A DNA stretch of 64,000 bases, from assembly GCA_030710605.1 (NCBI GenBank), contig CP092884.1, positions 25,339,483 through 25,403,482 on the forward strand, written 5' to 3'. This document shows, piece by piece, positions 2,452 to 64,000 of this stretch. The position numbers and the translations under genes are program-made. The notes beneath the pieces were generated by a model, which did not search any database, was not told the origin of the DNA, and saw only the letters and a list, made by a program, of their open reading frames with translations. The stretch is from Cordylochernes scorpioides. Its lineage: Eukaryota; Arthropoda; Arachnida; Pseudoscorpiones; Chernetidae. Position 1 is the first letter of the stretch; each line of letters opens with the position of its first letter.

Positions 2452-2540
2452 ATAAATCTATTAAATAATTATTTAAATATAAATAATTATAATTCATTTT
2501 TGAAATATATTATTAAAATTAATAATAACAAAGATTAAAG

Positions 2541-5500: not shown

Positions 5501-7623
5501 GAGGAGAGTGAAAATGGATTTGGCCATGCTAAATCATATTAAAATTCCTAGATATATTTCCTGCAAGGGACTTATACACTCTTTAGAACTCCACGGATTT
5601 TGTGATGCTTCCGAATCTGCATATTCATCAGTTGTTTATATGAAATCTCGTTTTAAATCTGGTCATGTTCAAGTCACATTGATTGCTGCCAAGACAAAAG
5701 TCGCTCCCTTGAAGGCAACGTCAATACCTCGTCTGGAGCTTTGTGCTGCTCATCTCCTTTCAAATTTATATGATTCTATTTGCAGCTCATTGCTGTTGCA
5801 GATTGACCGAGTAATGTTGTGGACAGATTCCCAGATTGTTTTATGCTGGATAAAATCTGAATCAAAACATTGGAAACCTTTTGTTGGTAACCGGATTGCA
5901 GAAATTCAGCGACTAACTCTGCAATCTTCTTGGTACTATGTGTCTACCAAGGATAATCCTGCAGATTGCGCCTCCAGAGGTATAACTTCTTCAGAACTAG
6001 TAAACCATTCACTTTGGTGGAATGGTCCTGATTGGCTATCAAACTCAAGTTTACAAGATCCGCTACCAATCACATATGAACTTCCAAAAGAAGTTTGTAA
6101 TGAAAAAAGAAAGACTGTTCCGATTGTTCATTTCACTACTTGTCCTATTCTAGACTTTATTTTTAAATTCTCAACATTCAGGAAGCTGAGCAGAGTTACG
6201 GCATGGCTCCTAAGATTTATCCACAATGCTAGACACAGCAGCGACAAAATAAAACACAAAGAATTGTCCTCTAATGAGCTCGATAATTCAATTCGAACTC
6301 TTATTCAAATCATTCAAAGTTCAGAATTTAAAACTGAAATTCAATGTTGTAATCAAAGCAAAGTACTACCATCAAACTCAAAACTTTTATCCTTAAACCC
6401 ATTTATTGATTCATCAGGAATTCTACGTGTAGGAGGTCGACTGCGCAAATCCAACCTGCAATTCAATGAGAAGCATCAAATAATTCTTCCTCACAACCAT
6501 TTTGTTACAGAATTGATTGTTCAACAATTCCACGTAGAGCATCTTCATTCTGGTCTCCAATTAACTCTGTGTGCCATCCGACAAAAGTACTGGATTCCAT
6601 CCGGTAGAATTCTAGTAAAAAAGCTCATTAATCGTTGCATGACATGTTTCAAGACGAAACGCCAAGTGTCAAAACAAATCATGGGAGATCTGCCTATCCA
6701 TAGAATCATACCCTCAAGCCCTTTTAGCAAAACAGGAATAGACTTCGCAGGACCATTTATAACTAAACCTAATGTCATAAGAACAAAAGTAACATTAAAA
6801 TCATATATAGCATTATTCATTTGTTTCTCAACGAAGGCTATTCACCTTGAGATAGTTTCAGATCTGTCAACCCCTGCCTTCCTCGCTGCTTTTAGAAGAT
6901 TCATCTCTCGTCGAGGAAAACCCTCTGATATTTTCACCGACAACGCTACTAACTTCAAAGGAGCTAAGAATATTTTGAATAATATACATCAACTTGTAAA
7001 GGATTCTTCAATTCAAAATTATGTCGCTAATGAACACATCACTTGGCATTTTATACCTCCATCTGCTCCAAACTTCGGCGGCATTTGGGAAGCAGGAATT
7101 AAATCATTGAAGTATCATCTCCTAAGGTGTTTAAAATCTGCAGTTTTAAATTTTGAAGAACTCAATACTCTGACAAGTCAAATTGAAGCGTGCTTGAATT
7201 CTCGCCCGTTGTATCCGATGAGTTCGGATCCAAATGATTTCAACCCTCTTACTCCAGGACATTTTTTGATTGGAAGACCATTAACAGCACTCCCAGAGCC
7301 CAGTTATCACCCTAATGACAACTACGTAACTAGATGGAAATTAATTCAAAAGGCCAGGGATGTTTTCTGGCAAAGATGGTCCAGGGAATATCTGAACAAT
7401 CTGCAACAACGGTCCAAGTGGAAAAAAACCCTCTTCCAACCTGAAGGTTGGAGATTTGGTGTTGGTAAAAGACTTTCCTATGCCTTCAATGCAGTGGAGC
7501 CTTGGCCGCATCACCAAGGTGTCACCTGGAGCGGATGGCAATGTCCGAGTTGTGGAACTTCAAACAGAGAAACAACATCATCTAATAAGACCCATCTCGA
7601 AGATTGCACTTCTGCCATTCTAA
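2541..7623 (+). CDS. BEL/Pao gag-pol polyprotein with one late frameshift
   Basis: Reverse-transcribing polyprotein. Order by approximate residue: DUF1759 gag (about 105-260, SFSGDVNEWLSFKQLF), zinc knuckles (about 315-375), aspartic protease ALIDTGSQ (about 437), reverse transcriptase with YVDD (about 846), RNase H (GFCDASES about 1019, LWTDSQIVLCWI), integrase zinc finger H-H-C-C (about 1330), and core residues D (DFAGPF), D (FTDNATNF) and E (GIWEAGIKS, about 1515). The C-terminal DUF5641 segment is present but in the +1 frame after an A7 run at 7422-7428, and ends at TAA 7621-7623. Without that shift the frame runs on through poly-A into the 3' LTR to 7970. One extra A in a homopolymer could be a mutation or an assembly error. 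Confidence 0.93.
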
Positions 7624-7749
7624 TTCTTTTTCTTCTTCTTCTTAAAAAAAAAAAAAATAAAAATAAAAAAAAAAAAAAAAAACACTTTCTACACTATGTG
7701 ATCCTTTTCTTTTGCCTTGTGTGTGGACTACGTCCACAGGAGGGGAGTA

Positions 7750-8135
7750 TGTTTCGTTTTATTCTAACACAGGTGGCAGAAGGCAGCTCGCGGCGGTCAA
7801 GGTTGAGCTACGTCATCGCTGACCAATGGGGGGCCAGCTGGCGGACTGCCAGAGGGAGCTGGCCACCTTCTAGAACATTCTTCTTACCAACGCGCGCCAC
7901 TAAAGACAATGCATTTCATAGCTGCGGCTTTAAATCATATTCTTTAAATATTCAATGTAAAGAAAAATAAAATAAATTCATTTGTAAAGCTTGGGATGAT
8001 TGCCTGACCAAGATAAGTAAATTTGTTTCTTTACACTAGTATAAACATTCTATTCAATTAAGCCTAACGAGAACAAATTGTTTTGTAAACAATCATTCTG
8101 ATTTTCCTACTTGCGTATTTGCCAAGTGGGAAACA
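7750..8135 (+). repeat. 3' LTR of BEL/Pao element
   Basis: 386 bp, apparently identical to 2042-2427. Upstream lie a long A run (about 7645-7681) and a purine tract ending GGAGGGGAGTA. Confidence 0.95.
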
Positions 8136-8721: not shown

Positions 8722-8980
8722 AATTACAGTGAATACAAATTTCATGCTATATAGAAAATTCTTTAAAATACAAAGGTTGAAATTGAATATTATTCAACAA
8801 ATATTACTCAAAAATAAGCAGCAATGTTTCTTCAATTATTTGTTAACAAAAAGGCTCTGTAAAAATAGAGGGAAATTATAAAATGGTTTACTTGACATTG
8901 AGTGTTTTTTTATTGGTAGAGTGAAAAATGATACTTTTTGTGGGTCATCTTGTTACATCTTCCCATTCATAATTATTAGA
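8722..8980. other. Non-coding AT-rich spacer
   Basis: Nothing recognised between the SINE and the PLE. Confidence 0.5.
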
Positions 8981-9637
8981 GAATAAAAGGCATATATTGG
9001 ATTTAATAAAATATTTATTTTGCCAATATTTCGGCTGGCTGAACGCCAACCTTTATCGAGGCATCACATTTTTGTATACACAAACTCAGCCCCGCATAGT
9101 GTTATAATATCCCAGTTGAAATCAATTAAAATACAGAGTAGGTGGGAGAAATTTGTGCGCGAAAAAATTATTATAAAAAATGCAATCAAATATGTAAAAT
9201 ATCTTAAAATATTAAAGGAAAAAAATGAGTTCTATCTTATATTTAAAAAAAATTGTAATAAGTACATAAATAATTCATTAATAACTCATTAAGAGATAAA
9301 TCTAAAAATATATGTATCTATTAAAACATTTGAAAATAAATTTTAAATGATTTAAACAATACACTGTAAGAACCTTTTTAAAATTACAAAATTACAATTA
9401 AATATTGATCAATTAATTCCTAAACTTAAAGGAATTTTAAATGATGAAGTATTTGACAAATTTTATAAGTGTTTAGATACCAAATGTCAAAATAAAGCCA
9501 CTGCTATTCGCAACATTCAATCAAAAAAATTAAACACTTGGCAACAAAAAACACAACCCCAATCTCACCAAAATACTGTTATTAATCTTTCTAATCAATC
9601 AATTACACCCGAAATTACGACACTTCTATCAAAAGGC

Positions 9638-9871
9638 TTGAACCTCGTACCTTCCAAAAAAATTGATATTCCTAAAACTCTAGCTGCTATAGAAAATTCG
9701 ATAAAACAATTACCAGATAATAATAAGGCTAAAATTAGAACAGAAGTTACTCCTATTATTAAAAATTTAGAACGAAAAAACAAGACTAATTTAAATCAAG
9801 GAGAAAGACAGGACATTAGACTAAAGATTTTAATAAAAAACTTAATAAAATCATACGTTCACATAAATTAG
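9638..9871 (+). pseudogene. PLE N-terminal region, cut by deletion
   Basis: A 77-codon frame with basic, helical sequence (NLERKNKTNLNQGERQDIR) typical of the region before the RT of PLEs. The downstream sequence jumps to the part just before the YGLPKVHK motif, in another frame. The KADKG-type motif normally between these parts is missing. A deletion of roughly 150 bp is inferred at about 9822-9826, which also explains the frame change. Confidence 0.7.
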
Positions 9872-9906
9872 GCAAAAAAACATTTGAAAATTTAAAGGCT
9901 GAGGAC

Positions 9907-10905
9907 ATGAATTTACCCAACTTTTATGGCCTCCCAAAAGTACATAAGTCAAACACACCATTACGTCCGATTGTTTCCTATGCTGGTTCTCCTCTTTACC
10001 CCCTCACTAAATTTATTTCATCTCTTCCCCTCCAGAAATTACTTCCCCACACTGTCCCTAATTCTACAGTAGCTGCAAAAACGATCAGAAACCTTTCAAT
10101 TTCTAGTAACAGCCGTATGGTATTTTTCGACGTTGAATCACTCTACACTTCAATCCCCCACAATGAAGCTATTCTAGCACTCCAAAAATTTATAGAAACC
10201 CATCAAAATCTAGATTTTTCTTTCTCCACAGAGGCTTTGATTGATTTAATTAAACTTTGTTTGGAACACAATTATTTTAGCCACCAAAATAAATTCTACC
10301 GACAAATCAAAGGCTTGGGAAACCCTATCTCATCTGCTTTAGCAAACATTTTCATGGACCAAATTGATCAAGTTGTCATAGAATCAAAGCAACTCAAAAT
10401 TATTTTTTGGAAAAGGTACATAGATGACATTTTTTGCATTACAGAATCAGATTTTGTAGTAATTTCAAATTTTTTTAATAATTTAAGACCATTTTTAAAA
10501 TTTACACATGAAATTGAAAATAATAATTCTCTGGCATTTTTAGATTTACAGCTCAAAAGAAAGTTTAACCAAATAGAAACTAGTATTTTTAGAAAATCAA
10601 CCCACACAGGTAATTATTTGAATTTCAATTCTTTTGGCCCAGTTCACCATAAAATCACTGTGGTTAAATCTCTCTCCAAAAGATTAAATTCACATTGCTC
10701 GTCAAAAATTAATGATTTAATGGAGAGAAATAGAATATTCAGTGAATTAAAAAACAACAATTACCCAAGCAAATTTATCGAAAAACATTTTTATAAACCA
10801 AAATCTCCACCTTCAAATAACACCCCTGATCAATCAAAAAAGCTTTTCTGCTCCCTCCCCTACAGCTACGGCTCTGAACGCATCGCCAGAGTCCTAAAGA
10901 GATAG
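9907..10905 (+). CDS. Penelope-type reverse transcriptase
   Basis: RT core of a PLE, which uses a nicked target 3' end as primer. Visible blocks in order: FYGLPKVHK (residue about 5), PLRPIVSY (about 18), FFDVESLYTSIP (about 73), GLGNPISSALANIFM (about 137), and the catalytic WKRYIDDIF (about 168) with two aspartates intact. It ends at TAG 10903-10905. The same frame then continues into the GIY-YIG domain, so this stop probably splits one original protein. The first ATG is internal to the original frame, because the true start lies upstream of the deletion described above. Confidence 0.92.
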   Translation: MNLPNFYGLPKVHKSNTPLRPIVSYAGSPLYPLTKFISSLPLQKLLPHTVPNSTVAAKTIRNLSISSNSRMVFFDVESLYTSIPHNEAILALQKFIETHQNLDFSFSTEALIDLIKLCLEHNYFSHQNKFYRQIKGLGNPISSALANIFMDQIDQVVIESKQLKIIFWKRYIDDIFCITESDFVVISNFFNNLRPFLKFTHEIENNNSLAFLDLQLKRKFNQIETSIFRKSTHTGNYLNFNSFGPVHHKITVVKSLSKRLNSHCSSKINDLMERNRIFSELKNNNYPSKFIEKHFYKPKSPPSNNTPDQSKKLFCSLPYSYGSERIARVLKR

Positions 10906-10983
10906 AACATCACAACCACCTATCAATCATCTTTAAATTTAAAAAAGGCCCTACGCCATCCAGACACTAAACAAATTAACAAA

Positions 10984-11310
10984 ATGGAAAACAAAATCAA
11001 CGTAATTTACAAAATACCTTGTTACAATTGCCATGCTAATTATATAGGGGAAACCAGCAAACCACTCAAAGATCGTATAAATCAACACAAATCAGGACTA
11101 AGGAATTACAACCCACTGTCTCTCCTTGTATTTCATGCACTAAAAAACAACCACACTCCGGATTTCGAAAATACAGCCATTTTATACCAGAACATTAAGG
11201 AAAAACACTGCCGATTGTTCTTAGAAAGCTGGGCCTCTGTAGAAGACAAAGAAAGCATAAATAGGAAAATTGATTTACCAGACATCTACACACCATTTAG
11301 ATCTTCTTAA
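10984..11310 (+). CDS. GIY-YIG endonuclease domain of the PLE
   Basis: C-terminal nuclease that nicks target DNA for PLE insertion. Seen: NVIYKIPCYNC, HANYIGET, the LKDRINQHKSG helix and a late FLESWASVEDKESINRK block, matching the diverged GIY-YIG motif of PLEs with its CxxC insert. It is in the same frame as the RT, 78 bp after the RT stop codon, and so is a cut-off domain rather than a separate gene. A C-rich acidic end (DLPDIYTPFRSS) closes the frame. Confidence 0.9.
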   Translation: MENKINVIYKIPCYNCHANYIGETSKPLKDRINQHKSGLRNYNPLSLLVFHALKNNHTPDFENTAILYQNIKEKHCRLFLESWASVEDKESINRKIDLPDIYTPFRSS

Positions 11311-11866
11311 TTTTTTTGTCTAATTATTTTAATTTCAATTAGTTAATTTTTATTTTTTAATTGACTTATTATGTACTATTTTAAAGGGAGAGGTGTCGTT
11401 TTTTAAATTTCATAACTTTGCTTTATTAAATTTTTTTTGCTTTAATGAATTTTTAAATTTTGTTGTAATACCCGCGATTTCTTAAATTATATTTTCACAC
11501 ATTAGTAATAACCTGTAATTAATACATACCACTTGTTTAATTATTTTTACATTTATCGTTTCAAAACGCAAAAGTATTGATACATTAAATTTATAACATA
11601 TTACATGCAATAATTTAAACTTTTTTAGTTTCCACTTATTAATTTATTTGTTCTCATATTTTCATCCTAAATTGTTTTAACTTCCATTTTAATGAATTTT
11701 TATAAAGTATTTTATTTTACTTATTTATAAATTTTGATCTCCATAAATTTTAAAATGAATTTTTTAAATACCCACATTTTTTTGTTAAACACTTTTTAAA
11801 GAGGTTCTTACAGTTTATTGTTTAAATCATTTTATTTTTTTTTTCAAATGTTTTAATAGTTGATAT
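11311..11866. other. PLE 3' non-coding region
   Basis: T-rich sequence. From about 11800 it becomes the reverse complement of about 9325-9400, marking the start of the right inverted terminus. Confidence 0.6.
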
Positions 11867-12206
11867 TTGCGGAAGAGCGATTGCTCGAAGCATATTATAT
11901 ATTTATAATTATATTCAATTATGCTGTCCTAAAAGCTTATGTCCATAGTTCTTCTAAAATACCCATTCCAAGAGTCTTACAACAGTCAACTATAAAAGGA
12001 AGTTCCAAAAATGCAATATAACAGCGGTATGGTAGATTAAACTGGCAAAACCGCTGGGAGGGTTCACCACTGATGAGCCAGGCCCTCCCTTTAATTTTTC
12101 CATTGCAGTAAGGACAGTAGAAATTGTTTTATTTTAAAAAAGAATATTACGCCTCTAAAATAGTTTTATAATTTGATAACAGATGGCGCGCTAGTGCATC
12201 GTAACA
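11867..12206 (+). mobile_element. HHpk repeat (copy 1) inside the PLE end
   Basis: A 340-bp repeat beginning near a GAGC/GCTC hairpin (11875-11900) and ending GATGGCGCGCTAGTGCATC. The ribozyme-like core lies at 12023-12089: helix III AGCGGT/ACCGCT (12023-12028, 12050-12055), helix II CTGGC/GCCAG (12042-12046, 12077-12081), CTGATGA at 12070-12076, and an outer GGGAGGG/CCCTCCC. The G of the GAAA motif is A here (12047), so this copy is probably inactive. It interrupts sequence that is continuous in the left PLE arm. Confidence 0.75.
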
Positions 12207-12538
12207 TATATTTTTACATTTATCTCTTAATGAGTTATTAATGAATTATTTTTATGTACTTATTACAATTTTTTTATTATAAGGTAGAACTCATTTTTTT
12301 CCTTTAATATTTTAAGATATTTTACATATTTGATTGCATTTTTTTATAATAATTTTTTCATGCACAAATTTTTCCCACCTACTCTGTATTTTAATTGATT
12401 TCAACTGTGATATTATAACACTATGCGGCACTGAGTTTGTGTATACAAAAATGTAATGCCTCGATAAAGGTTGGTGTTCAGCCAGCCGAAATATTGGCAA
12501 AATAAATATTTTATTAAATCCAATATATGCCTTTTATT

Positions 12539-13049
12539 ATCTAAATGAATTAAGTATGGATTGTTCTATTTTCAAAATGATTCATAATTATAATTGTCTA
12601 AAATATTGTGGTTTCCATCAAAGGAATACATTTTTGTGTTATCTGAATCAATTGAATCAACTGATCCCAAAAAATCGGACATGTTGATATGCTAATGCGA
12701 TGGGTAAAATTACCTTCAAAAAATGGGTGATTTGTAATCAGTAGTAAAATGGACGGCCAGCGGGAATATCTGCGAATCCTGAATATACCTAACAAGGCTT
12801 CCGTTCAAAAAATTGTACTGTAGCAGTCGTTTCTATGAATCTATAAGCTGATTTGTTTGTGGCCCGTGAGACGGGCATGATCACGTCATTTGTAATAGCT
12901 TTCTATTTTTATATCTTATAATAGAAAAGTTACATTGTCTTATTCTACATGTTCTGAAAAATGAACATAAATGTGAACAATGTCCCCAAATTCATTGTTT
13001 TGAAATCGCAAATTTTTTTATTTTAAAATTTATTAATCACAATTTTAGG
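12539..13049. other. Non-coding, nothing recognised
   Basis: No gene or known repeat identified. Confidence 0.4.
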
Positions 13050-17652: not shown

Positions 17653-20508
17653 TCAGTTCAGATCTTGAGGCGCAAACGGAAGAGGAGCTAACTTGGTGAT
17701 TGGTCTTTTAAAAACTCCTCTGGCTGTCCTGACGAGTGCGACTCGCACTACTTTGTCGCTCCCTGGAAACACTTCAATTATTCTTCCCAGCCGCCATCGC
17801 ATTGGTGGAGTCCCATCTTCCTTTATTAAGACCAGTTGATCTACCTCTAGATTTAATTTCTTTTGCCTCCATTTTCCCTTTTGTTGTAAAGAGTTAATGT
17901 ATTCTCCGGACCATCTTTTCCAAAAGGAATTTCTTAGTTTTTGCACTAGATTCCACCTCGATGTTAAATTAAATTGGTCCTTAGAAGTTGGCTCTGGTAT
18001 ATCAATCATGGACGTACCAATCAGGAAATGTCCGGGCGTCAATGCTTGAAGATCATTCGGGTCTGAACTTGACTCTACGAGTGGCCGACTGTTCAAGCAT
18101 GCCTCGATCTGGCAAAGTAAAGTGGCAAATTCCTCCGGGTTCATCAGCGATGTCCTGCCAGCCTTGATTATATGGCCCTTGACACTCTTTATATTGGCCT
18201 CCCATAGGCCTCCAAAGTGTGGCGCGGATGGCGGTATAAAGTGCCACGTAATTAATTCTTCTGAAATAAATTCTCTAGTTTCTATTGCATTAATTATTTC
18301 AAACTGCTCTCTTAGAATTCTTTGAGTGCCTTTAAAATTTGTTCCATTATCTGAATAAATGTCGGATGGCCTTCCTCTTCTTGAAATGAATCGTCTTAGG
18401 GCTGCTATAAAGGAGTTCGTAGAGAGGCTGGTTACCATCTCAAGATGGACTGCCTTTACAGCAAAACAGACAAACAATACGACATATGCTTTTATCACGC
18501 TTTTGGACCTGATCAAGCTGGGTCTCAGTCCGAATGGACCCGCTATGTCTATCCCGGTTTTAAGGAAAGGTCTAGAAGGGTTCACTCTATCAGGCGGCAA
18601 GTTTCCCATTATTTGCTCGACTGTTCGAGCTCTGAGTTTAAAACAGATCAGGCAATTTTTGACTACTCGTCTTACTATTTCTCGGCCTCCCAGTATCCAA
18701 TACTTATTTCGTATTAGCGATAAAACCAAGTGAGGGCCCGCATGGAGATATCTTTGATGATATTCTTGTATGATTAACCTGGTGATATGGTGTTTTTTAG
18801 GCAAGATCATCGGATGTTTCTGGTTGGATGACAAGTTAGACCTCTGAAGGCGCCCTCCAACTCTAAGTAGGCCCTCGTCGTCCAAAAATGGCCCTAAATC
18901 CAAGATTCGATTCTTATTTGGAAGCTGACAATGATCATTTAACGATTGAATTTCATGAAGAAATTCGGAACATTGTACTAGCTTGACAATCACCATTATA
19001 GCACGATTCATCTCAGCTGTTGTCAAGGGACCATATTCTCTTTCCTTACTTGCTCGTTGGCAATTTGCTCCAAATCTTAGACACCAAGCTGTGACTCTTT
19101 TTAGTCTCGTGAAAGACGAGTATTTCAGAAAGTATTCCGGAACGTTTGTTGTCTGGAGATGGCAGAATGCCACAATCTCTTCTTGCTCTTGAATTTGAAG
19201 ATCACTGTTCGAGTTCTCCCAAATTCGCTCAACACAGTCATCTTTCAACCACGAGGGTCCTTGCCACCAAAGTTCATGTTTTATCAGTGCCGCAGGCTTT
19301 AGACCTCTCGACGCACAATCGGCCGGATTATCCTTTCCAGACACGTGGCCCCAATACTTTAATTCTGTCAACTGCTGTATTTTCATAACTCGATGACTTA
19401 TAAATTTCTTCCATCTATTAGGATCCGATTTTATCCAGCAAAGTGCTATCTGAGAATCCGTCCATAGACGAACTTCATCTAGTGGCAATTTAATTGATTC
19501 TACAATAGACCTATAAAGCTGTGATAGAAGAAGAGCAGCACATAACTCCAATCTCGGAAGTGTACAAGGTTTGCAGGGGGCGACTCTTGTTTTCGCCGCA
19601 ATTAGTGATATCCCAATTTGTCCTTCAATAGTTTCCGATTTTAGATAGCAAACCGCTGAATATGCCACGCTTGAAGCATCGCAGAATCCGTGAAGTTGGA
19701 TATTCCTACTATTTTGATCCATAAAAATATATCTAGGGACCTCCAACTTGGTCAGCACACTCATTTCGTCACGAAAAGAGTTCCACCTTGATCTCCACCT
19801 TTCTGACATGGGCTCGTCCCAACTTAACTTTTCCTTCCATAGTTCTTGCATCATAATTTTCAAGGCGACTGTAAGGGGTGAAAGGAAGCCCAATGGATCA
19901 AATATCCTAGCAATGTTGGACAAATAATCCCTCTTTGTTATGACTTCACCAGGGTTATTTATATTGATCCTGAAGGCGTCCCGTGAATTATCCCAAAGAA
20001 TTCCTAAAACCCTTGACGAAGCGTTAACACCCAATTCAGTCTCAGTTTCATCCATTTGGGACACAAGTTCATGGCAATTGGATTTCCATTTTCTAATCTC
20101 GAAACCTCCCTTTGACATCAGACCTATCATTTGTTTTATCAACTCCTCGCCTTCCTGTTTTGAAGATACTCCCGTTAAGAGATCGTCCACATAGAAATCA
20201 CTCATTACGACCTTTAAAGCCGTTGGAAACTCTTTGCATTCATCCCTGGCCAGCTGTTGTATTGTCCTAATAGCCAAAAAGGGGGCAGATGTAGTCCCGT
20301 ATGTTACTGTCAACAACCTATAATCTTCCACCGGTTGTTCAGGTGTTTGTCTCCATAATATCCTTTGGTAATCTGCATCCTCTGGGTGAATTCTCACTTG
20401 TCTGAACATCTTTTCTATATCAGCAATAATCGCAATTGGATGTGCTCTGAATCCCGTCAGGATGACAAATATATCCCTTTGGATCTTTGGTCCGGTGTTC
20501 AATATTTG
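17653..20508 (-). CDS. BEL/Pao pol (RT, RNase H, integrase), 5' truncated
   Basis: An open frame of about 950 residues without internal stops. RT with FYVDDLL (about residue 103), RNase H with GFCDASSVAYSAV and LWTDSQIALCWI, integrase zinc finger (YHQRYLHAG, NCLICFK), and core D (GIDIAGPF), D (YSDNGTNF) and E (GGLWEANIKS). DUF5641 is intact here: GKWRQKKLNL through RWRLGRI and RPITKLAPLPF. It starts at the edge of the N gap, so the first ATG is not the true start. It is only moderately similar to the plus-strand BEL at 2042, so this is a separate lineage. Confidence 0.93.
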   Translation of the reverse strand, partial: QILNTGPKIQRDIFVILTGFRAHPIAIIADIEKMFRQVRIHPEDADYQRILWRQTPEQPVEDYRLLTVTYGTTSAPFLAIRTIQQLARDECKEFPTALKVVMSDFYVDDLLTGVSSKQEGEELIKQMIGLMSKGGFEIRKWKSNCHELVSQMDETETELGVNASSRVLGILWDNSRDAFRININNPGEVITKRDYLSNIARIFDPLGFLSPLTVALKIMMQELWKEKLSWDEPMSERWRSRWNSFRDEMSVLTKLEVPRYIFMDQNSRNIQLHGFCDASSVAYSAVCYLKSETIEGQIGISLIAAKTRVAPCKPCTLPRLELCAALLLSQLYRSIVESIKLPLDEVRLWTDSQIALCWIKSDPNRWKKFISHRVMKIQQLTELKYWGHVSGKDNPADCASRGLKPAALIKHELWWQGPSWLKDDCVERIWENSNSDLQIQEQEEIVAFCHLQTTNVPEYFLKYSSFTRLKRVTAWCLRFGANCQRASKEREYGPLTTAEMNRAIMVIVKLVQCSEFLHEIQSLNDHCQLPNKNRILDLGPFLDDEGLLRVGGRLQRSNLSSNQKHPMILPKKHHITRLIIQEYHQRYLHAGPHLVLSLIRNKYWILGGREIVRRVVKNCLICFKLRARTVEQIMGNLPPDRVNPSRPFLKTGIDIAGPFGLRPSLIRSKSVIKAYVVLFVCFAVKAVHLEMVTSLSTNSFIAALRRFISRRGRPSDIYSDNGTNFKGTQRILREQFEIINAIETREFISEELITWHFIPPSAPHFGGLWEANIKSVKGHIIKAGRTSLMNPEEFATLLCQIEACLNSRPLVESSSDPNDLQALTPGHFLIGTSMIDIPEPTSKDQFNLTSRWNLVQKLRNSFWKRWSGEYINSLQQKGKWRQKKLNLEVDQLVLIKEDGTPPMRWRLGRIIEVFPGSDKVVRVALVRTARGVFKRPITKLAPLPFAPQDLN

Positions 20509-20608
20509 NNNNNNNNNNNNNNNNNNNNNNNNNNNNNNNNNNNNNNNNNNNNNNNNNNNNNNNNNNNNNNNNNNNNNNNNNNNNNNNNNNNNNNNNNNNN
20601 NNNNNNNN
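20509..20608. other. Assembly gap (100 N)
   Basis: Exactly 100 N, probably a placeholder of unknown size. It removes the 5' part of the minus-strand BEL element. Confidence 1.
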
Positions 20609-20850
20609 CACAGATATTTTTATTGACAAGTTACAGTAGATGAAGACAGTAAAGCACAGATATTTTATTGACAGAGTTACAGTAGTTGAAGACAGTAAGG
20701 CACAGATATTTTATTGACAAGTTACAGTAGTTGAAGACAGTAAGGCACATATATTTTATTGACAAGTTACAGTAGTTGAAGACAGTAAGGCACAGATATT
20801 TTATTGACAGAGTTTCAGTAGTTGAAGACAGGGACGGCCTCAGTTAGGGA
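20609..20850. repeat. Minisatellite, about 45-47-bp unit
   Basis: Near-identical units beginning CACAGATATTTTATTGACA and containing TTGAAGACAGTAAGG, about 4.5 copies. It abuts the gap, which it may have caused. A short GGGACGGCCTCA duplication follows (about 20831-20859). Confidence 0.9.
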
Positions 20851-23299: not shown

Positions 23300-23500
23300 A
23301 AGAGCATCAAATATTATCTCTACAGACCTTACTTCAATGATAAGGCACAATTTAAATTATAGATTATAAACACAAGGTAATAAGACCAAATCCAATTATT
23401 ACAATGATAAAAGTTATTGAATGAGATGGCTCGGCTTATCAGTGGTGAACCCTGTCAGCGGTTTCAACAAATGAATCTCCAGATCGCTCTACTATTGTAT
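23300..23500 (-). mobile_element. HHpk repeat (copy 2), interrupted
   Basis: Reverse copy with CTGATAA, ACCGCT and the GGTTCACCA block at 23430-23497. Helices are decayed (AGCGAT against ACCGCT). Sequence typical of the PLE foldbacks (AATGATAAGGCACAATTT through AGACCAAATCC, 23336-23392) sits inside it. The Gypsy LTR begins at its upstream end. Confidence 0.65.
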
Positions 23501-27745: not shown

Positions 27746-27890
27746 ATAGTAGAGCGGTCTGGAGATTAATTTGGTGCTGAGAAGGTTCACCACTGATGAA
27801 CCAAGTCCTCTAATTCAATAACTTTTATCATTGCAATAAGGTCTGTAGAGATAATATTTGATGCTCTTTTAAAAAAGAAACACATTGTTC
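27746..27890 (+). mobile_element. HHpk repeat (copy 3)
   Basis: AGCGGTC at 27753-27759 and helix II TTGGT (27771-27775) with ACCAA (27800-27804), a compensatory variant of TTGGC/GCCAA. CTGATGA is at 27793-27799. The GAAACC segment is deleted, so this copy should not cleave. Confidence 0.7.
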
Positions 27891-29584: not shown

Positions 29585-29757
29585 ATTAGCGCCCCATCTG
29601 TTATGAAAATTTGAAACTATTATAGACGGGTATGATTCTTTTAAAAATAAAATAATTTCTACTGCCCTAACTGCAATGGAAAAATTAATGGGGCGGCCTG
29701 GCGGCTCATCAGTGGTGAACCCTCCCAGCGGTTTTGCTAGCTTCACCGTTATTTACA
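29585..29757 (-). mobile_element. HHpk repeat (copy 4), partial
   Basis: Reverse copy: AAAACCGCTGGGAGGG, then GTTCACCACTGATGAGCC, and the 3' end CAGATGGGGCGCTAATACATC. Helix II and the cleavage-strand part are not conserved. Confidence 0.65.
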
Positions 29758-37155: not shown

Positions 37156-37262
37156 TCATTCTACTGTCCTTACTGCACTAAAAAATAATGGGAGGGCTTG
37201 GCTCATCAGTGGTGAACCATCCCAGCGGTTTCGCCAATTTAATCTACCAGTATTGTTGTGAA
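37156..37262 (-). mobile_element. HHpk repeat (copy 5)
   Basis: Reverse copy with TTGGCGAAACCGCTGGG, TTCACCACTGATGAGCCAAG and CCCTCCC. Helix II is intact (TTGGC/GCCAA). The AGCGGTC strand is replaced, so helix III and the cleavage site are lost. Confidence 0.75.
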
Positions 37263-37485: not shown

Positions 37486-40400
37486 CTGGGGGCAACAAAC
37501 AGACTTTCTTTTACTGGGAATATATAAACTAGGAAAATGACCCAGTTTTGCCTGTCTGTGGGGTAGGAAGGAGTTCTACTGTTAGCATCACTGGTATAGA
37601 GGACAGGCAACATCCTAATGAGATGGCTAACAACACAAAAGGGGGCCGAATGAAAGCCAGGATAAGCTTTCGACTTCATTCTTGTAATCAAGGACACTCA
37701 GGGGGTCGGTGGAAGGGTGGTCTAAACCATTGGTTTTCAATGGCTATGACCCAGGATTGAATCCCGCATTGGGCCCTTTTTTTATAATTAAAAAATGCTC
37801 CAATAACCCCTGATTCTTGCAAAAGTCCAACCCCACCAGCGAGTGCAAGTAACCAAATGGGGCTCGGGCACATTTGTAAGTGCAAAATCGAACTGCTCCT
37901 CACATGTGTAGACATGTGATACACTTACAGTAAAAGCAGTCACTAACTACCTACTATGATTATAATGGCCTGTAACACGTGTACTTGGGATAATTAAAAA
38001 AAAAAAAAGGACACTCTCTTGTCCTTGGGGGAAGAAATCGTCCCAAAAGGTGGAAGAGCCAATTTTATTTGGCCAATAGCATAGAGGGAAGAAGGCAAAC
38101 CACTTCTGTATCAAACACTGTTGAGAAAACTATATGGTATAAAATATGGCATAGCCACCAAAAGTAAACTTGATGGACATTAACAACATAACAAAGGAGG
38201 GGTATAAAACCATTGATTTTTGACAGTCATAACTTGAAATCCAATCCCACATTGGATGCTTTAAAAAAAAAAGAAAATTGCTTCAATGTGGCCTCCAATT
38301 CTTGCAAAAGTCCAACCCCACCAATGAGTGCAAGTAACTAAACAGGACTCTGGCATACTTGTAAGTGAAAATTCGAAAATATTATAGACGTGTATGATTC
38401 CTTTTAAAATTTAAACAATTTCTACTGCCCTTACTGCAATGAAAAAATTAATGGGAGGGCCTGGCTCATCAGTGGTGAACCTTCCAGGTTTTTCCATTGC
38501 AGTAAGGGCAGTAGAAATTGTTGAATTTTTAAAAAGAATCATACACGTCTATAATAGTTTCAAATATTCATAACAGATGGCGCGCTAATGCATCATAATA
38601 CTTGTAAGTATAAAAAGTCAAACTGCATTCTACATGCATAGGCATGTGGTGCACAGTAAAAGCTGTCACCAACTACTCATCATGATTATCAAAGCCTGTA
38701 CCGTGTGTACTTGGAGGGATAAATTTAAAATATATTAAAAATAAAAAAGGCATATCCTGACATTGGGAAGCATGAAAATTACACATTCGATGTCAAATTT
38801 TGCATATAGTAATTAGAAATAGTAGCTTGAAATATGTACAGACAACACTTTTGCCTTAAAATATACAGCCTGCAGAATCTATTAAACTTGATGTATTGGT
38901 CTTTATTGCAAACAACCTGCTTTGCATTTGTCAGGTAAAGTTGGTTTTCTTCCCTTAGATCAGAAGTTAATGGACAGTTTATCAGAAGGTGTTCAGGGGT
39001 TTGTTTTTCGTTTCCACAAGTGCATGCAGGTGAACTAATTTTGCCAATTCTAAACAAATATGTGTTGAAGTCACCATGTCCAGTAAAAAATTGAATGTTA
39101 TAGAAGTTGGGTTGAACATAGTTAGGAATTCTTGAAGTCTCAAAGAATCCCTTGAAATTATCATTGGCACCTCCATAGTATTCCTAAAATTTCTGGTTTA
39201 TAAAATTAGATATAATTTTTCTTTTAGTTGGATCTGATTTTTTGTATCCAATATTTATTTTTAGTATATTTGTTTCAATAAAATCTGTGAGCTTTGGTCT
39301 TCTAGCAACAATATGAGTACAGTTTGAAGATGTTGAATTATAAACCTGTGTAATGTGCTTCAAAATTTTGTACTGCAGAGAGTTCAATTTATCTTTGATT
39401 TCTTTGGGTATAAAGTTGTACCAGATCATGGAACCATAAGTTAGTGAACTTCGAAACAGTGTCTTATAAAGTACTATTCTTCTTTTACTGTCCAGTCCCC
39501 ATGCTTTCCCGGTTAATCCAATTAGGTATCCACTAGCTCTATTTGTCTTAGTAATAATCTCATCAATATGAGGCACAAAATCCAATTTGTTTTTATTTCT
39601 ATGATTTTTAATAGTTATCCCCATAATCTTCAGTTTTTACACCCGATTGGCAGTGATAGTGTTCGGAATTTTTGCAGCTATTTTGCTATTAAACAAGTAT
39701 AAGATTTTCGTTTTCTCTTCAGATACGGTCAACTTATTGTTCCCACACCAGTCTAATATTCTCCCCATGACCTTTTCTGTTGTATTCCAAAGTTCTGTCA
39801 AGTTGTTTCCCCAGCATATCAGTTATATCACCGCATAAGCAATGATTTCACTGTTTGATTCTGAATAGTTATCCAATAAATCGTTTATTATTTGATTATT
39901 TTTTTAAGGGTTTCATTTGATGAATATCTAAATCTCACTCTTCTATTATTAAAGAAATACTGTAGTAGTTTTATTATTGAAGCTTGAACGTTGTCCTCTT
40001 CTAGTCTTTTTAGCACCATCGGCTACCATGCATTGTCGAACGCTCCACTTATATCAACTGCGATTATAGCTGTATATTCTTTGTTTTTGTGTTCTAGAGA
40101 TATTTTGACAATTTCATTTAATGCAGAGATGGTAGATCTTGATCTTCTAAATCCATGTTGACGATTGTTAAGCAGATTCAAGTCTTCATAAAATTTTATT
40201 AAATTGTTGTTAATTATTTTTTCAAATATTTTGGAAATGTTTTGGAGTTAAGATAAATGGGTCTGTAGCTTTTATAACTTTTCATGTCTGTTTTACCTGG
40301 TTTGGGAATAATTATTACCTCTGATTTTTTACATTCATTCGGATAATAATTTAAATATAAGCATTTTTGAAAAGTTTCACCAATATTGGAACTATTAGTT

Positions 40401-49560: not shown

Positions 49561-49702
49561 AACTGAACAGCTTGTAAATCAACAAAGGTGTACTGTAAGC
49601 CAAGATGGAAACTATGATAGGTTTAACTGAATATGCATGGCTCCCTGTCAGGAAAGAGGGGTATGTAAACAAACATCTAGTGGAGCCCAGCTAGGGACTC
49701 AC

Positions 49703-49713
49703 CAGCGTTGGTA
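49703..49713 (-). CDS. EXD3: Possible 3' end of an upstream EXD3 exon at the gap edge
   Basis: The minus strand reads ACCAACGCTG|GTGAGTCCC, a strong donor site. The exon itself would lie in the N gap. Tentative. Confidence 0.35.
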
Positions 49714-50235
49714 NNNNNNNNNNNNNNNNNNNNNNNNNNNNNNNNNNNNNNNNNNNNNNNNNNNNNNNNNNNNNNNNNNNNNNNNNNNNNNNNNNNNNNN
49801 NNNNNNNNNNNNNNNNNNNNNNNNNNNNNNNNNNNNNNNNNNNNNNNNNNNNNNNNNNNNNNNNNNNNNNNNNNNNNNNNNNNNNNNNNNNNNNNNNNNN
49901 NNNNNNNNNNNNNNNNNNNNNNNNNNNNNNNNNNNNNNNNNNNNNNNNNNNNNNNNNNNNNNNNNNNNNNNNNNNNNNNNNNNNNNNNNNNNNNNNNNNN
50001 NNNNNNNNNNNNNNNNNNNNNNNNNNNNNNNNNNNNNNNNNNNNNNNNNNNNNNNNNNNNNNNNNNNNNNNNNNNNNNNNNNNNNNNNNNNNNNNNNNNN
50101 NNNNNNNNNNNNNNNNNNNNNNNNNNNNNNNNNNNNNNNNNNNNNNNNNNNNNNNNNNNNNNNNNNNNNNNNNNNNNNNNNNNNNNNNNNNNNNNNNNNN
50201 NNNNNNNNNNNNNNNNNNNNNNNNNNNNNNNNNNN
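49714..50235. other. Assembly gap (522 N)
   Basis: Unresolved bases, directly before a long palindrome, which is a common cause of assembly failure. Confidence 1.
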
Positions 50236-50610
50236 TTTCGGTAACAGCGTTGTTACCATCTTCAGACAAAAGTACTGAATGAGAAATTTTACCACAGCAT
50301 GTTTTAAATAGTTACTTTTATCAAGTGTGTAAACAAGATAGTAAATAAGAAGAAGATAGTTTTCTGAGAAAAATAAAAAAGAATAATATTCCGTTTTTCT
50401 CAGAAAACTATCTTCTTCTTATCTGCTATCTTGTTTACACACTTGATAACAGTAACTATTTAAAACATGCTGTGGTAAAATTTCTTATTCAATGCTTTTT
50501 TCTGAAGATGGTAACAATGCTGTTACCGAAACGTCACACATTATTTATTTATTTGGATTTGGTCTTATTACCTTGTGTTTATAATCTATAATACAAATTG
50601 TGCCTTATCA
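50236..50610. repeat. Long PLE-derived palindrome with two hammerhead variants
   Basis: Arms of about 170 bp meet near 50390. Left core on the minus strand at 50236-50268; right core on the plus strand at 50512-50535: CTGAAGA, GGTAAC/GTTACC and GAAACGTC, all intact. Confidence 0.85.
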
Positions 50611-51189: not shown

Positions 51190-51325
51190 AGAGTAAAGTA
51201 GAATAAGCTGGCAAAACCAAGGGAAGGGTGCAACACTGATGAGCCAGGCACACCCTTTCCCTTCTATTTCTCTTATTGCATTAAGGAAAGAAGAAATTGA
51301 TTTTTTTTTTAACTATAGCATTAAA
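51190..51325 (+). mobile_element. HHpk repeat (copy 7)
   Basis: Helix II CTGGC (51208-51212) with GCCAG (51242-51246) is kept. The outer helix is changed on both sides (GGGAAGGGTG against CACCCTTTCCC), a compensatory pattern. The cleavage strand is lost. Confidence 0.65.
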
Positions 51326-58344: not shown

Positions 58345-59810
58345 TGGTAATTTAAACCAACAACCCCATACTGTGTATATAACTTATAATAAGATTGTCA
58401 TGTTGTATATAGAGACACATCTATAAATAACTAGCGGACGTACCCGGCTTCGCCCGAGGTTTTACCCGAGTAAAGGTTTGTCTAACGAACATCTGTTAAA
58501 ACAATTCTCTATAAACTTATAAAAAAAAGATATATTTCGATAATTTGAAACTCGTAAATTTGAATCTCTCGATAAAGTGAACATTTTTTCCCGGTCCCTG
58601 TGAGCCGTGTCATCCTGAATTTTGTCTTCCATAATTTTCTACATTACAAAATCATCGTTTTATCTAGTGAACATATTTTCCCGGTCCCTTGAAAAATATT
58701 CGATAAGTTGAATAAAATCATGGTCGTGAATCTCTCGATAAAGTGATTATTTTTTCCCGGTCCCTGTGTGCCGTGTCATCCTGAATTTTGTCTTTCCTAA
58801 TTTTCTACATTACAAAATCATCGTTTTATCTACATATTTTCCCGGTCCCTTGAAAAATACTCGATAAGTTGAATAGAATCATGGTCGTTTATGGAAGATG
58901 GACGTAGTTCCCGGAGGTTACCCGCCCCCCCCAGCGCCAGGACCTCTTGATCCCTCTGATTGGCCGGCGGCCGGACGGGGGTGGGGGGGAGGGGGGGCTC
59001 TTGATCCCTCTGATTGGTCGGTGGGAACTTGGACTGTCCAATGGCCGGCGGCCGGACGGGGGGGCAGACCTAAGCCTGAGGTGGCGTTGCTTGCGAGTTA
59101 AAGCTACAAATCTGCAAATAACTCTAAGGATATTAAAGATATTCAAGAAATTATTTTTCGTAAACCTTTCCGGGGATACACCTAATAATACCCCAAAATT
59201 TCACGGCGATTGGATGTATGGTTTTTGAATCCATAGAGGACACACACACACACAGACATTCAATTTTATATATATATAGATTATGCGCATGATTAATCTG
59301 TGTCATCGCATCGCCCTATGTAATGTAATTTGTACAAAGTGGATAAATAAATAAAATCTGTAATAGATTTAAGAGTTGAGCTAGGGCAGAGATCGAACAT
59401 ATAGTATTGCCAAAACAACAGAGTCTAAAGATGGAAGTCATAAATCAGGTAGATTCACAGTTCCCACGACAGGCCACCCACACTGTCACATGTGGTGGAA
59501 TGCAGAGACCCCTCTCACACCTGGACAGGTAAAGGCGCCCTTTCTCAAACGCCCCTGTCACATAAGGTCACCCCGTCTTTAACCTATAAATCATCACCTT
59601 ACAGTGACTTGACAGCTCAGTACAGTTCAGTACAGTTGAGTTTAGTTCACCCTTAGTGCAAGCCGCGTCGGTCGTATGTTATGTCGATCTCATCCAACAT
59701 GTAGTTAGGAAGAACTCGTCTATCTCCATCTTTTCGCTCCTTAGCTCAACTTTTATCTGTTACGGGACTTTCTTAGTGCAACTGTGTCTTCGTTTTTTGT
59801 GTGGATATCC
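58345..59810. repeat. Long direct repeat, right copy, with Helitron inside
   Basis: 58345-58430 plus 59281-59810 equal 53841-54456. Confidence 0.8.
58431..59280 (-). mobile_element. Non-autonomous Helitron (copy 1)
   Basis: Minus strand: 5' TCTATATATATA and 3' ending GTACGTCCGCTAG, with a hairpin (GGGCGAAGCC type) just before, and insertion between A (58430) and T (59281) without duplication. All are Helitron hallmarks. It holds a GC-rich core (58920-59070) with repeated TTGATCCCTCTGATTGG. Confidence 0.88.
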
Positions 59811-60489
59811 TTTGAGAACTTGCTTTCTCGACAATCAATTCAAGTAGTTGTCTAACGTACATTTCTGTCAGTAATACTTTGTCGCCGAATTTTTCTTGTA
59901 GAGCTTCTATGGCCTTTGCATAATTGGCCTCGGTGACGGTATACCCTTCCAGAAATTTTTGAGCTCTGGAACCCTTGGTCACTGCTTGGTGGAGGTAATG
60001 GAACTTGTCCACATCGCTTAAGGTATCGTCCTTATGAATTCTCTCGAACTCCCCCCACCATGGCAACCATTCCTTCAAGGTTCCGCTGAACTTCAAGAGT
60101 TCCAACTTGGGCAATTTGCATATCCTCTTTTCCGATAATGCAGAAGTAGAGCCATCTCTTTCCCGCTGATTCGTTGCGATGGAATCCAACGCGTCTTGTA
60201 CCTCCACCTCCATTCTGGTCAGCATACGCTCATACACATCGCAGCCTTCCAATTCTGCTGAGACTAGGTCTTCTGAGGCCTCCTCTTCTAAAAGTAAGGT
60301 CTCGATCTTTCCATTCAAAGCCTTTACTCTCTGCTTCAAATCTTTTAGCTGCTCGTGTAAAGCTAATATTTCCTTTCTATTCAAAGGATCATCCTCTATT
60401 ATCCTTTTGATTTCGACCACCTTCTTCGTCATCAATCCTCTGAGAGGAGATCTCATCTTCCTTAGGTTTTCCATCTTCTCTAGGATCAC
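59811..60489 (-). CDS. BEL/Pao gag, C-terminally truncated
   Basis: About 226 residues from MILEKMENLRKMRSPLRG. Coiled coil (about 25-75: ILALHEQLKDLKQRVKALNG), then DUF1759: KLPKLELLKFSGTLKEWLPW, FHYLHQAVTKGSRAQ and ALQEKFGDKVLL. Capsid role in the particle. It breaks off where it meets the long direct repeat; the last residues of the open frame (to 59773) come from the neighbour. A third BEL lineage in this window. Confidence 0.9.
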
Positions 60490-60717
60490 GTCCGGCTCAC
60501 CAATTTGTTAAGTCTTTGTGTTATTTCCAAGAATGACTACCAGTCATTAGAATCCCAGAGAAAGATCACTCTCAGCCTTTCTAAATAATATTTAACTTTA
60601 TTTTCTAATATGCAAATCCGAAATCTCAAAAGGCTCTATTTACATATGTACAGTTCACAATGTTTCTTTGACTTTATCTTATTTGACTTGATCCTCTTTG
60701 ACCTTGACTTCAAATTT

Positions 60718-62808: not shown

Positions 62809-63300
62809 TATATATAGAAAAAGAAACTCTTCCCTCAGCTAATTGTCTTTTATTTATAATTTTACCAAAGGGATTATAATATTAATAGTTATATATAAAT
62901 AATAAAAAAATCATATCCTGAACAAGAGCACATGAACTTTTTAGATAGCAGAGTGCCATCTAGTTGAACAGAAATCAACTAAACGTTGACTTAGCCTGTT
63001 CCCTGATAATTTGCTCAACCTATTTTCTTGATTAATCAAGAAAAGCCTTCCACGAAAGTGCTTCAGGCTGTTGGCCCTCATCAGCATGGTGCATGCTGTA
63101 CCACTGCGACCAAAAATGTTTTGGTCCCAGAGGCTTCCTGAGAAACCAAGAAAAATTATCATTTTAAAAATATTTTTCATTATTTTTTAACAAAAAATTA
63201 TATATTTAATTTTTAATTAAAAGGCATTTATTAGATCAAAATATCATTTATTTTACCAATATTTCAGTTGGCTGAACGCCAACCTTTATCAAGGTATTAT
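62809..63300. repeat. PLE-family repeat B (copy 2) and PLE terminus
   Basis: 62930-63160 matches 52440-52700. 63236-63300 matches the PLE terminus at 9010-9070 (CCAATATTTCAGTTGGCTGA). No gene. Confidence 0.65.
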
Positions 63301-63329
63301 AACATATTATCTTGTCCTTGTCTTTATTG

Positions 63330-63702
63330 CCTTGTCTTTATAGTTTGCTGAAGAGCACTGCTCGAAGCAAATATTTGAATGTAATTCTACTGTCCTATAA
63401 GCTTATGTCCATAGTTTACTTGAAAACCATTTCTAAGATTCCATCCTTCAGTGTAGCATATAAAAGCAGAATGATCCAATACAGTAATAGAGCTCTGAGA
63501 AGCGGTCTGGTGGATTAAATTGGCGAAACCGCTGGGAGGGTTCACCACTGATGAGCCAAGCCCTCCCAATATATTTTTTCATCGCAGTAAGGACAGTAGA
63601 AGTTCGTTTTATGTATAAAAGAAACATTCGCGCTTTAAAATCCTTTCATTTTATATGTATAGATGGCGCGTTATTGCTTTGTGTTAATTTATTCCTAACT
63701 GG
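63330..63702 (+). mobile_element. HHpk repeat (copy 8), full unit
   Basis: 373-bp unit from CCTTGTCTTTATAG to TTAATTTATTCCTAACTGG, followed directly by a second unit. Best-preserved ribozyme-like core at 63501-63567. Confidence 0.85.
63501..63567 (+). ncRNA. Hammerhead-like ribozyme core with pseudoknotted strand order
   Basis: Helix III: AGCGGT 63501-63506 with ACCGCT 63528-63533 (6 bp). Cleavage-site C at 63507 in a GTC triplet. Helix I: TGGTG 63508-63512 with CACCA 63543-63547 (5 bp). CTGATGA core at 63548-63554. Helix II: TTGGC 63520-63524 with GCCAA 63555-63559 (5 bp). GAA at 63525-63527 followed by A63528, which pairs with T63506. An extra outer helix joins GGGAGGG 63534-63540 and CCCTCCC 63561-63567. 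Every conserved catalytic-core position of a hammerhead is filled, but the strands come as cleavage strand, GAAA strand, CTGATGA strand, so all three helices cross. Activity is inferred, not known. Confidence 0.7.
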
Positions 63703-63985
63703 CCTTGTCTTTATAGTTTGCTGAAGAGCACTGCTCGAAGCAAATATTTGAATGTAATTCTACTGTCCTATAAGCTTATGTCCATAGTTTACTTGAAAAC
63801 CATTTCTAAGATTCCATCCTTCAGTGTAGCATATAAAAGCAGAATGATCCAATACAGTAATAGAGCTCTGAGAAGCGGTCTGATGGATTAAATTGGCGAA
63901 ACCGCTGGGAGGGTTCACCACTGATGAGCCAAGCCCTCCCAATATATTTTTTCATCGCAGTAAGGACAGTAGAAGTTCGTTTTGT
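63703..63985 (+). mobile_element. HHpk repeat (copy 9), second tandem unit
   Basis: Repeats 63330-63612 almost perfectly at a 373-bp offset. In its core helix I has TGATG instead of TGGTG (mismatch at 63883). It then leaves the repeat and enters GTCTGATGATGGTGACA. Confidence 0.85.
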
Positions 63986-64000
63986 CTGATGATGGTGACA
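63983..64000 (+). ncRNA. Start of a conventional hammerhead variant, cut by window end
   Basis: CTGATGATGGTGACA equals the first half of the variant at 52932-52972 (minus). It shows that HHpk units are followed by the standard PLE hammerhead variant. Confidence 0.5.

What the first reader, a model, noticed from the sequence alone, without database searches (positions are those of the whole stretch)
63501..63567. Complete hammerhead core in a non-permuted, pseudoknotted strand order
Seen: helix III AGCGGT/ACCGCT, helix I TGGTG/CACCA and helix II TTGGC/GCCAA are all perfect. CTGATGA, GAA plus the A-U pair, and the GTC cleavage triplet are all at the exact positions a hammerhead needs. Known hammerhead types I-III are circular permutations of one strand order (cleavage strand, CTGATGA strand, GAAA strand). 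Here the order is cleavage, GAAA, CTGATGA, so pairs run 1-4, 2-5, 3-6. The molecule would be two side-by-side hairpins (AGCGGT/ACCGCT and GGGAGGG/CCCTCCC) whose loops pair twice to build the core. The linkers (GATTAAA, 7 nt; GGGAGGGTT, 9 nt) look long enough to span. I know of no described hammerhead with this topology.
Basis: partly seen in the sequence, partly recalled or inferred. Interest (0 to 1): 0.96.

Follow-up and report, generated by a model that had tools for sequence, protein, structure and literature searches.

The report
Rearranged hammerhead ribozyme in arthropod retroelements
The sequence encodes a hammerhead self-cutting RNA whose parts come in an unusual order that was first published in 2023 from environmental RNA; here it sits, in tens of thousands of copies, in small repeats of an arthropod genome that look like jumping elements.

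Summary
A scan for all six strand orders finds only this site in the window; 40 random windows give none in this order. Copies show compensatory changes in stem II, the fourth helix and, weakly, stem I. The novelty claim is wrong: this is the published 'type-SGC' hammerhead (Eckert et al. 2023, PMC10085705), which self-cleaves in vitro and has the same fourth helix. That paper reports such RNAs almost only from metatranscriptomes and none in a genome of a known organism. New here: a 2.6-Gb arthropod genome with 38,368 matches to a 34-nt core pattern, in several subfamilies; two of three compared with the window's unit share little beyond the ribozyme. The carrier is a ~372-bp non-coding repeat, in tandem or inverted pairs, whose ends resemble the two-site 'tail' of Penelope-like retrotransposons. 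Best reading: a retrozyme-like non-autonomous element, probably mobilised by Penelope-like elements, using a type-SGC instead of a type I hammerhead. Cleavage and RNA circles are inferred, not shown.

The parts
63501..63506 (+). stem III, first strand (S block); U16.1 is 63506
63507..63507 (+). C17, predicted cleavage after this base
   Evidence: position by hammerhead numbering (recalled); of 97 aligned copies 66 have C, 26 A, 4 T, 1 G here
63508..63512 (+). stem I, first strand
63513..63519 (+). 7-nt linker joining stem I to stem II (published type-SGC: typically 3 nt)
63520..63524 (+). stem II, 11.x strand
63525..63527 (+). G12 A13 A14
63528..63533 (+). stem III, second strand starting with A15.1
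63534..63540 (+). fourth helix (stem I-II interaction helix), 5' strand, joined to stem III with 0 nt between
63543..63547 (+). stem I, second strand
63548..63554 (+). CUGAUGA core (C block)
63555..63559 (+). stem II, 10.x strand
63561..63567 (+). fourth helix, 3' strand
63329..63701 (+). first 373-bp repeat unit (family A), carrying the ribozyme
   Evidence: (identical 282-nt stretches, spacing 373)
63702..63983 (+). second, 3'-truncated tandem unit; ribozyme at 63874-63940 with one stem I mismatch
11860..12203 (+). one family B unit, with an SGC motif at 12023-12089 whose G12 is A in this copy, lying inside a Penelope-like element
9347..11859 (+). decayed Penelope-like element around that unit: RT piece 9820-10902, GIY-YIG piece 10906-11307
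   Evidence: (RVT_1 E 4.8e-9; GIY-YIG E 2.2e-4, 21.9 bits, just under the 22.6 cut-off)
23422..23488 (-). diverged SGC-like copy, core decayed (CTGATAA)
27753..27812 (+). diverged D-type copy that lacks the GAAA strand
37159..37250 (-). copy that has lost the stem III part of the S block; G and C blocks kept
29632..29734 (-). truncated or diverged copy without a recognisable S block
38394..38485 (-). truncated copy without S and G blocks
51198..51309 (+). strongly diverged copy

Best explanation
The site is a type-SGC (non-circularly permuted) hammerhead ribozyme carried by a ~372-373-bp non-coding, non-autonomous retroelement of an arthropod. Shown: core, order, four helices, covariation at some pairs, tandem and inverted arrangement, two 3'-end classes, very high copy number, and Penelope-like elements in the same genome. 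Inferred: transcripts of tandem units fold so that the stem III and fourth-helix hairpins sit side by side; their loops pair twice (stems I and II) to build the normal hammerhead core; the RNA cuts itself after C63507 into 372-373-nt units with 5'-OH and 2',3'-cyclic phosphate ends; the units are ligated to circles or left as multimers; and a Penelope-like reverse transcriptase copies them from two sites ~30 nt apart, giving 5'-truncated tandem or two-armed inverted insertions.
For: Exact core and order. Published type-SGC RNAs with the same block order and fourth helix cleave at the predicted site; in the one tested in detail (SGC-3) all four stems were needed. Pair counts on 97 distinct copies: distal stem II pair UA 40, AU 24, CG 21; first stem II pair CG 70, UA 5; second fourth-helix pair GC 63, AU 26; stem I pair 1.2-2.2 GC 83, AU 4; covariation score 0.176 against 0.117 in shuffles and at most 0.094 in slid structures. 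One real copy each compared with A: B, C and D match at 22-29 of 30 bases in the three ribozyme windows 63509-63568, while C and D match at 7-16 of 30 upstream (63329-63493) and fall again to 8-18 beyond 63599. 78 of 97 distinct copies keep every tested core base. Copy number: 19,310 + 19,058 matches to a 34-nt core pattern, control 0; exact 67-nt ribozymes 5,122 + 4,947 (A) and 2,902 + 2,961 (B). Of 45 family B arms in 27 loci, 3' ends fall at unit positions 144-161 in 21 and 178-191 in 20; 13 of 14 loci with exactly two arms have one of each. This fits the Penelope 'tail' of 30-40 bp and its two RT start sites (passages of PMC11167929). 114 RT matches listed for the genome, a number of them in open frames of 800 aa or more, some in tandem.
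Against: No cleavage assay or RNA data were available. The rows of the alignment were chosen by likeness to the motif, which inflates pairing. Against shuffles, neither the number of pairs with a double change (9; reached by 153 of 500) nor further pair types (30; reached by 151 of 500) is above chance; 71 of the 95 double-change cells come from two pairs that switch between subfamilies. Stem III has 2 double-change cells and stem I pairs in 81% of cells. C and D copies have a gap and a mismatch in stem I. 5' ends of insertions are not enriched at the cleavage site (1 of 45 within 3 nt), so cleaved linear monomers are not the usual template. The one inter-ORF stretch fetched from each of two tandem Penelope arrays has no SGC motif, so the partner element is inferred. 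The 0-nt join between stem III and the fourth helix is hard to reconcile with the known hammerhead shape, as the authors of PMC10085705 say of a few of theirs.
Confidence: 0.85

Rival explanations
1. The three blocks act between tandem units: S and C blocks of one unit with the G block of the next unit form an ordinary type III-order (SCG) hammerhead with a ~370-nt loop, and the local SGC fold is not the active one.
For: Units occur in tandem, so the order S1-C1-G2 exists, and covariation cannot tell the two apart because the pairs are the same.
Against: The local fold needs no 370-nt loop; the fourth helix can pair within one unit; published type-SGC transcripts of about 80 nt cleave on their own.
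Confidence: 0.1
2. The conserved stretch is kept for another reason, such as binding the Penelope protein or priming reverse transcription, and the hammerhead core no longer cuts.
For: It is the only clearly shared part of the A, C and D copies compared; in one Penelope element hammerhead cleavage was not a necessary step for insertion in vitro (passages of PMC11167929); insertion 5' ends ignore the cleavage site.
Against: Binding alone would not demand C3-A9, G12-A14 and a cleavable H17 that is C or A, nor Watson-Crick exchanges in stem II.
Confidence: 0.1
3. Chance resemblance in an ordinary satellite or SINE.
For: The nested folding energy is unremarkable.
Against: 0 SGC hits in 40 random windows; exchanges between subfamilies; conservation concentrated in the ribozyme.
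Confidence: 0.01

Closest known systems
Type-SGC hammerhead ribozyme, HRIMA-1 motif and variants (Eckert et al. 2023, PMC10085705; abstract and parts 2-6 of 8 of the text read)
   Same: Block order, all core bases, stems I-III with two pseudoknots, and a fourth helix joining stems I and II; a few of theirs also have 0 nt between that helix and stem III.
   Different: Theirs are reported almost only from metatranscriptomes and none in a genome of a known organism; stem I-II linker typically 3 nt there, 7 nt here; here the carrier is a genomic repeat. Their alignments (supplement) were not available for a direct comparison.
Metazoan non-LTR retrozymes (PMC7229834; passages read)
   Same: Short non-coding tandem repeats (150-450 bp), GC below 50%, a hammerhead in each unit, Penelope-like elements in the same genome.
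   Different: Those carry type I hammerheads; that survey searched type I and III layouts, so an SGC element could be missed. RNA circles are not shown here.
Penelope-like elements with minimal type I hammerheads (PMC11167929, passages; Cervera and de la Pena 2014, not read, recalled and cited there)
   Same: Tandem or partial-tandem copies and two 3'-end classes about 30 nt apart.
   Different: The 372-bp unit codes for nothing long (longest frame 77 codons in the doubled unit); the two inter-ORF stretches inspected carry another hairpin, not the SGC ribozyme.

Membership tests
Type-SGC hammerhead | Blocks in the order S, G, C | tested here: met
Type-SGC hammerhead | Core C3UGANGA9, G12AA14, A15.1-U16.1, H17 | tested here: met
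   window copy intact; 78 of 97 distinct copies keep all
Type-SGC hammerhead | Stems I, II, III and a stem I-II interaction helix | tested here: met
   89.7% of cells paired; 81-93% by helix
Type-SGC hammerhead | Covariation in the stems | tested here: inconclusive
   clear at one stem II pair and one fourth-helix pair; weak for stem I; nearly none for stem III
Type-SGC hammerhead | Self-cleavage at the predicted site | not testable with these tools
   no experiment; published RNAs of this layout cleave
Metazoan retrozyme | Tandem non-coding units of 150-450 bp, GC below 50% | tested here: met
   373 bp, 37.5% GC; arrays at 372-bp steps
Metazoan retrozyme | Canonical type I hammerhead in each unit | tested here: not met
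   only the SGC order among 53 hits; no Rfam hammerhead in the window
Metazoan retrozyme | Small circular RNAs in tissue | not testable with these tools
   no RNA data
Penelope-like element | Encodes RT with GIY-YIG endonuclease | tested here: not met
   the unit has no long frame; the element at 9347-11859 has an RT piece and a GIY-YIG piece just under cut-off
Penelope-like element | 3' tail of 30-40 bp in part of the copies | tested here: met
   two end classes, 144-161 and 178-191, in 41 of 45 family B arms; two similar classes among family A ends, with some others
Rfam hammerhead families | Covariance model match | tested here: not met
   no hit at gathering threshold in the window; no hammerhead at E up to 5 in 63300-64000. 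Those models describe the circular orders (recalled), so a miss is expected

The most novel reading that the evidence does not exclude
A new class of animal retrozyme that runs on a type-SGC hammerhead, present in tens of thousands of copies and mobilised by Penelope-like elements. Because a tandem array reads S-G-C-S-G-C, it also contains the ordinary order S-C-G across units; tandem repeats could therefore be the route by which an ordinary hammerhead became non-circularly permuted, a question the discoverers left open.
Probability: 0.55. Interest if true: 0.75.

Novelty: new variant of a known kind. Interest (0 to 1): 0.6.

Why it matters
Type-SGC hammerheads were known almost only from metatranscriptome contigs. 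An arthropod genome with tens of thousands of them gives an animal host, a large natural set of variants and a biological context (a mobile element). It also offers many natural versions with a 0-nt join between stem III and the fourth helix (no letter between them in any of the 97 aligned copies), the case whose geometry the discoverers found puzzling, and a possible route for the origin of non-circular permutations. Retrozyme surveys that look only for type I and III layouts may have missed such elements.

Tried and rejected
Rfam on the window at gathering threshold (no hit), on 63300-64000 at E up to 5 (two sub-threshold snoRNA matches) and on L091 and L092 (one weak PreQ1 match): none informative. 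Rfam Hammerhead_1 in the whole genome gave nothing, but the control also rang nowhere, so it says nothing. Viral contigs hold no exact match to the 34-nt core pattern. First idea that the unit is the pseudo-LTR of a coding Penelope element: set aside, because the stretches from two tandem arrays lack it and the window's element reads as a Penelope copy with one unit inside. Enrichment of insertion starts at the cleavage site: not found. Direct comparison with the published HRIMA-1 alignments: supplements not available.

Full report
What is there. Window 63501-63567 (+) reads AGCGGT-C-TGGTG-GATTAAA-TTGGC-GAA-ACCGCT-GGGAGGG-TT-CACCA-CTGATGA-GCCAA-G-CCCTCCC. [quoted passage not shown] The strand order is cleavage strand, GAAA strand, CUGAUGA strand, and a fourth helix encloses the CUGAUGA strand. 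The same motif lies 373 bp downstream with one change in stem I.

Chance. A scan for hammerheads in all six strand orders (stems of at least 4 bp, span up to 110 nt, both strands) has one hit in the window, this one. Forty first-order Markov windows, both strands, gave 3 hits in other orders and none in this one; none met stricter stem lengths (5, 5 and 6 bp). In L001-L092 plus the window (350,848 bases, some loci overlapping) 53 distinct hits were all in this order; 52 belong to the repeat family and one does not. Those loci were fetched mostly as copies of the family, so this second count shows consistency, not an independent rate.

What it is. The order is the published type-SGC hammerhead. 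PMC10085705 (abstract and parts 2-6 of 8 of the text read; one word search) describes 583 predicted type-SGC RNAs. Five that were expected to work cleaved at the predicted site, and one lacking the site did not. All four stems of SGC-3 were tested by disruption and rescue. The authors describe the same fourth helix and note that a few of theirs have no nucleotide between it and stem III. [quoted passage not shown] Searches of the paper library for hammerhead with Penelope (22 papers), for hammerhead with pseudoknot, topology and permut- (13), for the article's DOI fragment (3), for 'non-circular permutations' with hammerhead (3), for 'type-SGC' (1), for 'HRIMA' (7), and two looser searches of which only 20 of 41 and 15 of 286 papers were listed, showed me no title or abstract that reports a genomic or animal type-SGC element (listings only, apart from the three papers cited). 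The library lacks most subscription papers and preprints.

The host. The window lies in a 2.62-Gb genome of 24 contigs. At least 150 Chitin_bind_4 matches mark it as an arthropod. That this family is typical of arthropods is recalled; the 14 control genomes, which ring in 0, are not named and may be microbial, so they add little. The species is unknown to me.

Copy number and subfamilies. A 34-nt core pattern (one two-letter position) occurs 19,310 times forward and 19,058 times reverse, with 0 in the reversed-pattern control. The exact 67-nt family A ribozyme occurs 5,122 + 4,947 times and the family B one 2,902 + 2,961 times. By eye the copies fall in five subfamilies, A to E. They differ in the distal stem II pair (mostly T-A in A and D, C-G in B and E, A-T in C), in the second fourth-helix pair (mostly G-C in A, B and C; A-T in D and E) and in the cleavage base (mostly C in A, C and D; A in B and E).

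Covariation. From L001-L128 and the window I kept 97 distinct motif sequences that resembled the three blocks within set mismatches; copies that had lost the S or G block, or lay at a locus end, were dropped, and rows class as A 22, B or E 26, C 28, D 20, other 1. On their alignment, 89.7% of cells pair (shuffles 86.6%), 95 cells have changes on both sides (shuffles 38.0) and the covariation score is 0.176 (shuffles 0.117; best slid structure 0.094). The number of pairs with a double change (9; shuffles 7.8) and of further pair types (30; shuffles 28.7) is not above shuffles. So the signal is strong at two pairs that switch between subfamilies (71 of the 95 cells), small at the first stem II pair (5) and one stem I pair (GC to AU, 4), and nearly absent in stem III (2). 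78 of 97 sequences keep all tested core bases.

Conservation. One real copy each of A, B, C and D was aligned; E was not included. In the three 30-base windows at 63509-63568 the other three match A at 22-29 bases. Upstream (63329-63493) C and D match at 7-16; downstream they fall from 22 (63554-63583) to 8-18 beyond 63599. B stays at 12-27 away from the ribozyme. I did not test these low values against unrelated sequence. The ribozyme is the only clearly shared part between A and C or D in this comparison.

The carrier. The A unit is 373 bp with 37.5% GC and has no long frame; the B unit taken from a tandem in L035 is 372 bp. Units occur in tandem arrays (many at steps of 372 bp) and in inverted pairs. 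For family B, 45 arms of at least 100 nt in 27 of the 30 loci fetched were listed after removal of repeats: 21 end at unit positions 144-161, 20 at 178-191 and 4 elsewhere; 13 of the 14 loci with exactly two arms have one of each class, though in L050 the two arms are not adjacent. Family A ends also cluster at about 155-165 and 186-195, with some others. Passages of PMC11167929 describe a 30-40-bp 'tail' in part of the genomic copies of Penelope-like elements and two adjacent RT start sites that explain it. Starts are scattered; 1 of 45 lies within 3 nt of the cleavage site.

Penelope-like elements. The window holds one at 9347-11859: RVT_1 at E 4.8e-9 and GIY-YIG at 2.2e-4, just under the cut-off, in separate pieces. 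A single family B unit (11860-12203) lies in its 3' region, and Penelope sequence resumes after it, matching L091, which has no unit there. 114 RT matches are listed, with tandem runs at about 3.24 kb and 2.77 kb spacing. The inter-ORF stretch that I fetched from each of these two runs has no SGC motif; both carry another hairpin upstream of the frame that resembles a decayed minimal type I hammerhead (by eye).

How it most likely works. Inferred: tandem transcripts fold unit by unit; the stem III and fourth-helix hairpins lie side by side and their loops pair twice to make the core; cleavage after C63507 frees 372-373-nt units; ligation gives circles, or multimers persist; a Penelope-like enzyme copies them from two internal sites. 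Arms longer than about 180 nt cross the cleavage site, so their templates were circles or uncut multimers. Stem energies (-5.1, -5.2, -8.3 and -13.6 kcal/mol for I, II, III and the fourth helix) fit hairpins that form first and loops that join later.

Verdict. The topology is known. The genomic, arthropod, repeat-borne and very abundant setting is new as far as the searches named above can tell.

Noticed in passing
L091:1194-1231, L092:726-764, window 63255-63300 (-), window 9022-9064 (-): Upstream of Penelope frames a hairpin (in L091 CTCGATAAAGGTTGGC-loop-GCCAGCCGAAATATTGG) looks like a decayed minimal type I hammerhead; by eye only, and Rfam at E up to 5 did not report it in L091 or L092.
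   Followed up: partly
window 8963-9315 and 12204-12559: 94% inverted repeats flank the Penelope copy and its unit at 9347-12203, perhaps a two-armed inverted Penelope insertion.
   Followed up: partly
window 63344-63371 (and 63717-63744): TTTGCTGAAGAGCACTGCTCGAAGCAAA hairpin in each unit, largely kept between families A and B; could be a binding site for the reverse transcriptase.
   Followed up: no
window 2529-7967 (+), 17656-20619 (-), 59776-60507 (-): Long frames that look like BEL/Pao retrotransposons (by eye and recalled).
   Followed up: no
window about 49630-50420 and within 17656-20619: Translations show runs of X, so the window holds runs of N there.
   Followed up: no
G000:C9:82543654-82557710: Five Penelope RT frames in tandem at ~3.24-kb steps, three of them listed with open frames of 814 aa.
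   Followed up: partly
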